A model generated the notes under the pieces. That model had not been told where the DNA came from. It saw only the letters and a program-made list of their open reading frames with translations, and ran no database searches. The translations under genes were made by a program, and so were the position numbers. From Phycisphaerae bacterium (GTDB lineage Bacteria > Planctomycetota > Phycisphaerae > FEN-1346 > JAACEH01), in the NCBI GenBank assembly GCA_012729015.1, contig JAAYDY010000099.1, positions 1 to 64,000 of the forward strand: a DNA stretch of 64,000 bases, given 5' to 3'. Positions 40,721-44,014 of this stretch are shown in pieces (the stretch's first letter is position 1; each line of letters opens with the position of its first letter).

Positions 40721-41869
40721 ATGCGAACAATCGCCGTATTCAACCAGAAGGGCGGCTGCGGCAAGACCACCACAGCCATTCACCTGTCGGCCTGCCTGGC
40801 GGAATCGGGCAAGCGGACATTGCTGATCGACCTGGACCCGCAGGGCCATGCGACGATCGGCACCAACGTGAAGCAGGAGGACGTCGAGTGCTCGACGTTC
40901 GATTGCCTGGTGGACCGGGAGGACGGCTGCGCGACGCTGTCGCTGGCCGACATCGCCTGGGAAATCCTGAACGACTTGTACCTGGCGCCGGCGTCGATCA
41001 TGCTGAGCGCGGCCGAGCAGCGGCTGTCGGGCCTGGAGAACCGCCAGGAGCGGCTGCTGGAGGCGTTGCGTCGTATCGAGCACTTGTACGATTTCTGCGT
41101 GGTGGATTGCGGGCCTTCGATGAACCTGCTGTCGATCAACGCGTTGCGTGCCGCCGACACGGTGGTCGTTCCGGTGGAGACGGGCTTCTTCTCCGTTGAA
41201 AGCGTGGGTCGCGTACGCGAGACCATCCAGATGGTGGCCCAGCGCACCGGCCACGAGCCGCGCGTCCTGATCCTGCCGACGATGTACGATCCGCGGACCA
41301 AGAGCGATCGGGCGGCGTACAAGCAGCTCCAGCGGGACTACAACGATCTGCTGGCCGAGACGACGATCCGGTTCAACGCCAAGCTCAAGGAAGCGGCGGC
41401 GGCCGGCAGCCCGATCACGGAGTTCTTCCCTGGGTGCCGCGGGCACAAGGATTACCAGTCGCTGGCCCACGAGCTGATGGCCGAGACGGTGCAGTTCCGG
41501 ATGGTCGAAACGGCCGCGACGGAACGGACGGCCCGTGCGGAGCAGACGGCCGCCGTGGAGAAGATGACCCAGGAGATTCTCGGGCCGAACCTGGTGGACG
41601 ACGGCGTGGTGTTCCTGGCGCGGGCGCCGGGGGCTCAGAACGTGCGTCTGGCGGGCAGCTTCAACGGCTGGAACCCGGACGCCGGGACAATGGCCCGGGA
41701 CGCCGGCGACGACACGCTGTGGCGGCTGCGCGTGCCCCTGGGCCACGGGCGTCATGAGTACCGCCTGGTGATCGACGGCCAGTGGGCCGCGGACCCCGCG
41801 AATCCCAATACGCGCGTGAACGAATTCGGCGAGTTCAACAGCGTGGTCGAACTGGGAAGCGCCGTCTGA
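40721..41869 (+). CDS. ParA/MinD-type ATPase fused to a glycogen-binding domain
   Basis: 382 residues; ATG with GGAGGAG 5 bases upstream. Residues 1-260 are a ParA-family ATPase: deviant Walker A QKGGCGKTTTAIHL (both the signature Lys and P-loop Lys are present), LLIDLDPQGHATIG and switch VVDCGPSMNLLS. Residues 265-290 form a linker helix. Residues about 292-382 match the CBM48/AMPK-beta glycogen-binding fold: VVFLARAPGAQNVRLAGSFN, GWNP, HEYRLVIDGQWAADPANP, FGEFNSVVEL. In known CBM48 domains the Trp residues contact alpha-glucans. Such ATPases position cargo; the fusion suggests glycogen-linked positioning or segregation. A partner gene follows after 73 bases. Confidence 0.9.
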   Translation: MRTIAVFNQKGGCGKTTTAIHLSACLAESGKRTLLIDLDPQGHATIGTNVKQEDVECSTFDCLVDREDGCATLSLADIAWEILNDLYLAPASIMLSAAEQRLSGLENRQERLLEALRRIEHLYDFCVVDCGPSMNLLSINALRAADTVVVPVETGFFSVESVGRVRETIQMVAQRTGHEPRVLILPTMYDPRTKSDRAAYKQLQRDYNDLLAETTIRFNAKLKEAAAAGSPITEFFPGCRGHKDYQSLAHELMAETVQFRMVETAATERTARAEQTAAVEKMTQEILGPNLVDDGVVFLARAPGAQNVRLAGSFNGWNPDAGTMARDAGDDTLWRLRVPLGHGRHEYRLVIDGQWAADPANPNTRVNEFGEFNSVVELGSAV

Positions 41870-41942
41870 TCGCTACCCGTCGATCGGGGGAACCGATCGC
41901 AGGGAGCGTGCTCCGACGCAAGGACGCGGAGGCCGCCAGGAA

Positions 41943-43670
41943 GTGAATCCCCAATCTCCCATGGCCAGGCCGATCGGTCGGCAACAGGCGCTCGACCAGT
42001 TGGGCGATCTGTTTTTCGGCGCCACGGGCGCCCGCCCGCCGACGCCCCTGGAACCGCCCGACGGCTTCGCCGCCGCCGGCCCGCCTCCGCAGAACCGCAC
42101 GCCGTCGCCCGGCGTGGACGACCTGCTGGCCCGGCCCCTGGACATTCCCCACAACGACGTGCGGGCGGACGTTGCCCCGGCCTGTCCTGCCACGGTGGCG
42201 ATCCTGACCGGCGGCGTGCCTCCCCAGCGCAGGCTCTTGCTGGCGCGCGAGGCTGTGGCGCGGTTGATGGCGCCGTGCGGGCTGACGGCCCTGGTCACGT
42301 TCGACGGCCCCCGGGCCACCGTGGCCGCCCTGGCCCGCGACGACGTGCAGGTGGCCGCCTCCGAGGCGTGCGGCCATTTCGGCGACGTGATCCGCGCAGC
42401 CGACCGCGTGATTCTGGTGCTGGCCGATGCCGCGGGCGAGTTCATCGCGTCCGGGGGGTCGTTGCCGGACCACTGCGTGGTGCTGACGTTGGCGGACCCA
42501 CAGTGGCTGGTCGAGGCATACCGCGAACTGAAGGCCGCCACGACGGCTACGAAGGGCCCCGTGCCGGACGTTTTCGTGCTTGAGGCCGACGCCCGGGACG
42601 AGGCGGAACGGACGTTCCGGCGGCTGTCGCGCGTGGCGATTGCCCATCTGGGCTGCTCGCCGACGTTCGTCGGCCACACCGTGGGCCGCGGCGGCACGGC
42701 GGCGCCCGTGCCCGTCCGATGCGTGTTCGATTCCCTGGACGCCCGGGCGGTGTACGGATGCCTGCAGCCGCTGCTGCGCGTCCGCGGCGGCGACGCGACC
42801 GGGCCGGATCGCAGTGCTGCGCCCCCGGCCGCGCGGCCGCAGGAAATACAGAGCGTGACGGTCCGTCCCGCCGAGCCGCAGGCCGGGCGACGGCAGACGT
42901 TGCCGCCGGTGGCCGGCGTGGTGGACATGGAACGAGGCGGCACCGGAGCGGCGGCGTTTGCGGCGTGGCGACCCGCGTCCCGGGACGAGCTTCTGGAGGC
43001 CGTGGCCGCATCGCTCGCAAACGTGGTGCCCGGTCTTCGCGGCACCATCGACGTGCGGGCCGACCTGGGGGCCGACGCCGAGGGGCCCGACCTGGTGGCC
43101 GTGGACCGCGACGGCGCGGCCGTAGCGGTGCTGGTGGCCGAGGACGGCAACCCCGCGGCCCTGGTCCGCGCGGGCCGGTGCCGGCGATGGTTGGCGGCGC
43201 ACGTGCGGTTGCTGCGGCGGGCGTACGGCGACGCCGGGCTGGCGGCGGGGGATCGCCCGGTCGGGTGCGTGGTGCTGGCGGCCGACGAACAGGCGGCGAC
43301 GCTCCGCGGCCTGCGACCGCAGGACGTGCGTCTGGTGACGTATCTGCCCCTGAGGTGCGGGGCGGTTCATGGACTTCTGCTGCGGGAATCGACCGACACG
43401 GCAGACACCGTGATTGGCACTGTCTCCGAAAGGGAGTCGGCGAGCGTTGCGTCCGCGCTGGGCGCAGCGCCGCCGTCGCCCGAACGATCGGCGGCCGCTT
43501 CAACCGCGGGGGCGTCGGCCTCAGTGCCGCACGACGAGCCGCCCCGGGCCGCCGTGGCGCCGGCCGACCTCGAACCGTCGGACGCCCGAGGCACCAGCCC
43601 CGACGACGACCTCTCGGCCGACGAGTTGAGCGACCTGAGGAACGGATTCGAAATTGATGAACTTACCTGA
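41943..43670 (+). CDS. Degenerate MinD-like protein, partner of the ParA fusion
   Basis: 575 residues, GTG start with GGAGG about 11 bases upstream (an ATG 18 bases on is possible). Residues about 82-265 resemble MinD/FlhG in outline: TVAILTGGVPPQRRLLLARE sits where a P-loop would be, but lacks GKT; DRVILVLADAAGEF, and DEAERTFRRLSRVAIAHLGC with SPTFVGHT match the late MinD helices and strand. Residues about 340-460 (GPDLVAVDRDGAAVAVLVAE, YLPLRCG) resemble the core strand pair of PD-(D/E)XK-like domains without the Lys. The C-terminal 110 residues are disordered and acidic. It probably partners the ParA fusion as a non-hydrolysing adaptor. Function unproven. Confidence 0.65.
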   Translation: MNPQSPMARPIGRQQALDQLGDLFFGATGARPPTPLEPPDGFAAAGPPPQNRTPSPGVDDLLARPLDIPHNDVRADVAPACPATVAILTGGVPPQRRLLLAREAVARLMAPCGLTALVTFDGPRATVAALARDDVQVAASEACGHFGDVIRAADRVILVLADAAGEFIASGGSLPDHCVVLTLADPQWLVEAYRELKAATTATKGPVPDVFVLEADARDEAERTFRRLSRVAIAHLGCSPTFVGHTVGRGGTAAPVPVRCVFDSLDARAVYGCLQPLLRVRGGDATGPDRSAAPPAARPQEIQSVTVRPAEPQAGRRQTLPPVAGVVDMERGGTGAAAFAAWRPASRDELLEAVAASLANVVPGLRGTIDVRADLGADAEGPDLVAVDRDGAAVAVLVAEDGNPAALVRAGRCRRWLAAHVRLLRRAYGDAGLAAGDRPVGCVVLAADEQAATLRGLRPQDVRLVTYLPLRCGAVHGLLLRESTDTADTVIGTVSERESASVASALGAAPPSPERSAAASTAGASASVPHDEPPRAAVAPADLEPSDARGTSPDDDLSADELSDLRNGFEIDELT

Positions 43671-43936: not shown

Positions 43937-44014
43937 GGTGAGCTTAGCTCAGTTGGTTAGAGCACCAGGTTGTGGTCCTGGGGGTCGGGGGTTCGAATCC
44001 CCTAGCTCACCCCA
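43937..44014 (+). tRNA. tRNA-His (GTG anticodon)
   Basis: Acceptor stem GTGAGCT (43938-43944) with AGCTCAC (44004-44010); the extra G at 43937 pairs with discriminator C 44011, the mark of tRNA-His. Anticodon stem CCAGG/CCTGG with loop TTGTGGT, anticodon GTG at 43972-43974. T arm GGGGGTTCGAATCCCC. The 3' CCA is encoded (44012-44014). Confidence 0.97.

What the first reader, a model, noticed from the sequence alone, without database searches (positions are those of the whole stretch)
40721..43670. ParA ATPase fused to a glycogen-binding domain, with a degenerate MinD-like partner
Seen: one frame encodes a complete ParA ATPase (QKGGCGKTT, DLDPQGHA, VVDCGP) followed by a CBM48/AMPK-beta type domain (LAGSFNGWNP, YRLVIDGQWAADP). 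The next gene has MinD/FlhG-like late motifs but no P-loop and a second domain resembling PD-(D/E)XK cores without Lys. Known: ParA-type ATPases position DNA, chemoreceptors, carboxysomes and flagella; CBM48 domains bind alpha-glucan. Inference: a positioning or partition system for glycogen granules or a glycogen-sensing spatial regulator. I know of no described system of this kind.
Basis: partly seen in the sequence, partly recalled or inferred. Interest (0 to 1): 0.8.

Follow-up and report, generated by a model that had tools for sequence, protein, structure and literature searches.

The report
ParA ATPase fused to sugar-binding domain
One class of planctomycete bacteria carries an ATPase of the kind that positions large objects inside cells, permanently joined to a domain that normally grips glycogen and usually encoded next to a dead relative of a flagellum-placing ATPase; it may be a new way to place or sense sugar stores, but its cargo is not proven.

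Summary
Gene 40721-41869 encodes a complete ParA ATPase joined by a long helix to an AMPK-beta/CBM48 domain. The next gene, 41943-43670, encodes a FlhG-derived protein without a P-loop, with disordered stretches and a C-terminal alpha/beta domain. This is not a chance fusion. The ParA-CBM protein occurs in 45 of 61 related genomes, forms one clade, and was not found outside the window's class among 392 phylum genomes. Its ATPase residues and the two CBM tryptophans equivalent to AMPK W100/W133 are identical in 39 of 39 sequences. The partner lies directly downstream in 32 of the 45 and was never detected without the fusion (0 of 16). Profile comparison ties the partner's core to FlhG (99.2%), not to ParA (7.4%). 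Glycogen is plausible but unproven: alpha-glucan enzymes occur in nearly all fusion genomes but equally in genomes without it, no glycogen gene is linked, and 13 genomes keep the fusion without an adjacent partner. The system is not obligately flagellar. Best reading: a ParA positioning or sensing system whose cargo or signal is an alpha-glucan, tuned by a pseudo-FlhG. I found no description of it in the literature searched.

The parts
40721..41869 (+). gene for the ParA-CBM48 fusion protein (382 aa from ATG 40721; 387 aa from GTG 40706)
40721..41491 (+). ParA (Soj-like) ATPase domain
   Evidence: Pfam AAA_31 3.7e-47; Foldseek Soj TM 0.92
40745..40771 (+). deviant Walker A motif QKGGCGKTT; both lysines identical in 39 of 39 homologues
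41438..41578 (+). long helix (residues 245-291) joining ParA to the CBM
41582..41860 (+). CBM48/AMPK-beta type domain; W322, R353, W360 identical in 39 of 39, E376 37 of 39, N378 36 of 39
41943..43670 (+). partner gene, 575 aa, FlhG-derived pseudo-ATPase
41973..42017 (+). short helix with the family motif L..LadLFL in a disordered N-terminus
42189..42788 (+). degenerate FlhG/MinD-fold domain without P-loop
42519..42533 (+). YRELK: the only two residues (Y193, K197) identical in all 26 partners; the Y and K are also invariant in the 8 FlhG proteins aligned
42975..43421 (+). C-terminal alpha/beta domain of unknown kind; the partner hits detected in family f6 stop before it

Best explanation
It is a class-specific intracellular positioning or sensing system of the ParA/MinD kind. 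Shown: an intact ParA ATPase domain is fused through a long helix to a CBM48 domain whose main carbohydrate-contact residues are under strong constraint, and the pair gene encodes a FlhG descendant that has lost its P-loop. Inferred: the ParA domain cycles between ATP dimer and monomer on the nucleoid; the CBM gives the ATPase a direct grip on an alpha-glucan (glycogen-like particle), so that the cargo is bound by the ATPase itself; the pseudo-FlhG acts as adaptor or regulator, possibly by touching the ParA dimer and presenting its N-terminal L..LadLFL helix, and changes ATP turnover or couples it to another structure. The outcome would be spreading or equal inheritance of the glucan store, or a readout of glucan level.
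For: Fusion and domain integrity. Class-wide conservation, 45 of 61 genomes (with G041 added); one clade with SH-aLRT 99. ATPase residues K15, K20, D42, D44, Q46 and CBM W322, R353, W360 identical in 39 of 39; the AMPK equivalents W100, K126, W133 contact sugar and are needed for full glycogen binding (PMC2642990; alignment). Purifying selection, dN/dS 0.06-0.13 for the fusion and 0.13-0.20 for the partner in close pairs. Partner adjacent in 32 of 45 and absent in 16 of 16 genomes without the fusion. Partner core is FlhG. 44 of 45 fusion genomes have a GH57 hit or full GlgB, and the remaining one, 73% complete, has GlgP. The window genome has a GT4-GH57 pair and GlgP, and GT4 near GH57 is a suspected alternative glycogen route (PMC11046441).
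Against: GlgP and GH57 are about as common in genomes without the fusion (15 of 16 and 12 of 16). No alpha-glucan gene was recognised beside the module; the flanking genes identified are unrelated housekeeping genes that change between families. Classical GT5 GlgA is over cut-off in none of 61. Several order-f2 genomes with the fusion lack GlgB, GlgP and GH13. CBM48-type domains can also serve protein contacts (general knowledge). The partner N-terminus is not clearly basic, unlike known ParA partners (PMC10241942). One of the two Soj DNA-contact arginine positions is variable (positions recalled from memory).
Confidence: 0.35

Rival explanations
1. The CBM does not bind sugar as cargo but serves as a protein-contact or self-inhibition domain. 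The ParA positions some other structure, such as the division site or a secretion complex, and the pseudo-FlhG is the link to it.
For: No linkage to glycogen genes and no enrichment of glucan genes with the fusion. The partner descends from FlhG, a placement ATPase. Other ParA genes of the same class sit in type IV pilus operons, so ParA serves protein machines in this class.
Against: Both sugar-stacking tryptophans are kept in 39 of 39 proteins across the class, including genomes that lack the partner.
Confidence: 0.3
2. A glycogen-level sensor rather than a mover: glucan binding to the CBM changes ParA ATP turnover, and the pair tunes another process such as division or metabolism without transporting particles.
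For: In AMPK the same domain acts as an allosteric glycogen sensor (PMC2642990). The partner is dispensable in several families (3 changes on the tree), as an output module might be.
Against: No output partner is conserved beyond the pseudo-FlhG; there are no data on ATPase coupling.
Confidence: 0.25
3. A flagellar placement system, because the partner derives from FlhG and the window has fliD and fliS a few kilobases away.
For: FlhG homology; fliD and fliS at 32-35.5 kb.
Against: Genomes G002, G004 and family f6 have fusion and partner but no flagellin hit. Flagellar genes were not recognised near the other copies. A separate intact FlhG sits beside FlhF in the window genome.
Confidence: 0.05
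4. An ordinary chromosome or plasmid partition ParA that happens to carry an extra domain.
For: Closest solved structures are Soj/ParA.
Against: No ParB was recognised beside any copy read; the class has separate ParA genes outside the fusion clade; the class-wide pattern does not fit a plasmid gene.
Confidence: 0.05

Closest known systems
ParA/MinD positioning ATPases (Soj/ParA, McdA, ParC, PomZ)
   Same: Same fold and motifs; Soj match TM 0.92, 38% identity; usually a partner gene next door.
   Different: Carries its own carbohydrate-binding-type domain on a long helix; the partner is a FlhG descendant, not ParB- or McdB-like.
AMPK beta subunit glycogen-binding domain (CBM48)
   Same: Aligned domain with both sugar-stacking tryptophans and the asparagine kept.
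   Different: K126 is Arg and T148 is Glu here; attached to a ParA ATPase, not to a kinase complex.
FlhG/FleN
   Same: Partner core homologous by profile and fold, including the YxxLK stretch.
   Different: No P-loop, no C-terminal membrane helix seen, extra disordered arms and a C-terminal domain; present in genomes without flagellin.

Membership tests
ParA/MinD positioning ATPase | deviant Walker A KGGxGKT with signature lysine and conserved Asp residues | tested here: met
   K15, K20, D42, D44, Q46 in 39 of 39
ParA/MinD positioning ATPase | nucleoid or membrane binding | tested here: inconclusive
   one Soj DNA-contact Arg position is Lys in 35 of 39, the other is variable (positions recalled from memory); no membrane helix in the model
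ParA/MinD positioning ATPase | partner with positively charged disordered N-terminus | tested here: inconclusive
   N-terminus disordered with a short helix, but net charge near zero on average; rule from PMC10241942
ParA/MinD positioning ATPase | moves or places a cargo in the cell | not testable with these tools
   needs imaging of tagged protein and deletion strains
CBM48/AMPK-beta glycogen-binding domain | profile match over curated cut-off | tested here: met
   38.4 bits against cut-off 26.8
CBM48/AMPK-beta glycogen-binding domain | carbohydrate-contact residues W100, K126, W133, L146, T148 | tested here: inconclusive
   both W kept in 39 of 39; K126 is Arg in 39 of 39; L146 is mostly Phe or Tyr; T148 is Glu in 37 of 39
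CBM48/AMPK-beta glycogen-binding domain | binds glycogen | not testable with these tools
   needs a binding assay
FlhG | P-loop ATPase motif | tested here: not met
   absent in the partners aligned; the core is still homologous
PD-(D/E)XK fold (partner C-terminal domain) | sequence or fold match and catalytic residues | tested here: inconclusive
   strand and helix order compatible; no sequence or fold hit
ParABS chromosome or plasmid partition | parB adjacent to parA | tested here: inconclusive
   no ParB recognised in the neighbourhoods read, and the recurrent neighbour is the FlhG-like partner, but ParB was not searched by profile

The most novel reading that the evidence does not exclude
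A dedicated ParA system that positions and partitions glycogen-like condensates in planctomycetes by gripping the polymer directly, with a dead FlhG as its regulator: a bacterial machine for placing a carbohydrate store.
Probability: 0.25. Interest if true: 0.85.

Novelty: new variant of a known kind. Interest (0 to 1): 0.62.

Why it matters
Known ParA/MinD systems reach their cargo through a partner protein (PMC10241942). Here the ATPase itself carries a candidate cargo or signal domain, which would be a different design. Glycogen in E. coli forms condensates that gather at the old pole and skew nucleoid and division-site positions (PMC12706056), so a machine that places such stores would bear on a live question. 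The partner is also a clear case of a placement ATPase turned into a non-ATPase partner.

Tried and rejected
Flagellar role: rejected as obligate, since genomes without flagellin keep both genes. Co-distribution with glycogen genes: GlgA, GlgB, GlgP and GH57 were profiled in 61 genomes and GH13 in 10, and none separates fusion from non-fusion genomes. Conserved neighbours beyond the pair: none general; nrdR, dCMP deaminase, aroB, mcsAB and clpX recur only within families (names from reading the sequences). Partner missing nearby but elsewhere in the genome: in those 13 genomes the profile found only FlhG-sized single-domain proteins or nothing. Fusion outside the class: only ParA-part hits at the threshold used. 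PD-(D/E)XK: no support. Literature: no paper found on a ParA-CBM48 protein or on ParA with glycogen granules; only open-licence papers were searched.

Full report
What is there. The frame from ATG 40721 to 41869 encodes one protein with a ParA ATPase (AAA_31 3.7e-47) and an AMPK-beta/CBM48 domain over its curated cut-off. AlphaFold gives a confident model, mean pLDDT 91.7, of a Soj-like domain, a 47-residue helix and a beta-strand domain; Foldseek places the first at TM 0.92 on Soj. The following gene 41943-43670 starts 73 bases later on the same strand. It has no family match.

Is it more than chance? A search of 61 genomes around the window found ParA plus CBM in one frame in 45 (G041, a long-branch case, was added). 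The 16 without it are families f5 and f11 and genome G023. In 392 genomes of the phylum the fusion was found only in the window's class at the threshold used; hits elsewhere covered the ParA part alone. The class name is not given by the tools; the nearest named record is an uncultured Planctomycetia bacterium. A tree of ParA domains puts all fusions on one side of a branch (SH-aLRT 99), apart from other ParA genes of the same class. This is a quick tree with two long branches, so single placements are unsure.

Constraint. In 39 aligned fusions K15, K20, D42, D44 and Q46 of the ATPase and W322, R353 and W360 of the CBM do not vary; E376 and N378 vary in two and three sequences. Aligned with AMPK beta-1, W322 and W360 correspond to W100 and W133, R353 to K126 and E376 to T148. 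Those AMPK residues touch sugar and their mutation lowers glycogen binding (PMC2642990). So the stacking pair is kept, while two other contacts changed in a family-wide way. NG86 dN/dS in close pairs is 0.06-0.13 for the fusion and 0.13-0.20 for the partner; the window and its nearest relative are too diverged for a reliable value.

The partner. Its profile finds a homologue directly downstream of the fusion in 32 of 45 fusion genomes; in the 16 others it finds only weaker FlhG-type hits or nothing. It is missing next to the fusion in families f3, f12, f14 and f16 and in G041; on a tree of 39 fusions, without G041, that needs three changes. In family f6 the detected hit stops after the FlhG-like part. 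The core matches the class's own FlhG by profile comparison at 99.2%, E 2.5e-19, and does not match the ParA domain (7.4%), while FlhG and ParA match each other at 99.8%. Foldseek independently names FlhG first. The real FlhG, with intact P-loop, sits beside flhF in the window genome. The partner is therefore most simply a diverged FlhG copy that lost its ATP site. Its N-terminus is disordered with a short conserved helix but is not clearly basic, so the usual partner signature (PMC10241942) is only half met. The C-terminal domain remains unidentified.

What the cargo might be. GlgP passes its cut-off in 38 of 45 fusion genomes and 15 of 16 others; GH57 at E 1e-20 is found in 39 of 45 and 12 of 16. 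Of the six fusion genomes without GH57, five have a full GlgB and one, 73% complete, has GlgP. These counts were made by hand from the tables. So a glucan enzyme is nearly always present, but that is the background of the class and does not point to the fusion. No GT5 GlgA is over cut-off anywhere. The window genome has a GT4 with a starch-synthase catalytic match next to GH57, a suspected alternative glycogen route (PMC11046441). In order f2 no GlgB was found at the threshold used, GlgP passes in one of six genomes and GH13 in one of six, but all six have GH57. Flagella: G002, G004 and family f6 have no flagellin hit yet keep both genes.

Verdict. The module is real, conserved, and not described in the papers searched. 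Direct glucan binding is the leading reading because of the fixed tryptophans. Movement against sensing, and glucan against a protein target, cannot be told apart with sequence alone.

Noticed in passing
L138 2579-3376, L139 2892-3911, L140 2406-3203, L142 2914-3675: ParA genes inside type IV pilus operons (PilM and secretin genes nearby) in the same class; they group together in the ParA tree. L141 groups with them but no pilus gene was found beside it.
   Followed up: partly
L135 3884-5434 (genome G118): A ParA with a C-terminal Rieske [2Fe-2S] domain match over cut-off, elsewhere in the phylum.
   Followed up: no
L090 9032-10972, L132 5765-7831, L134 5581-6966: Family f11 genomes lack the CBM fusion but have ParA proteins of 461-688 aa with long C-terminal parts that match no Pfam family.
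   Followed up: no
window 43087-43179 and 43938-44014: ARAGORN reports a tRNA-Ala inside the partner gene, probably a false positive, and a tRNA-His just downstream of it that looks genuine.
   Followed up: no
L129 5950-6258 (G000 contig C91): A free-standing 102-aa CBM48 protein on the same contig as the glycogen phosphorylase of the window genome.
   Followed up: no
L128 5009-7644 (G000 contig C114): Adjacent GT4 and GH57 genes; the two also lie near each other in G002 and, by position, in other relatives. Candidate unusual glycogen synthesis route.
   Followed up: partly
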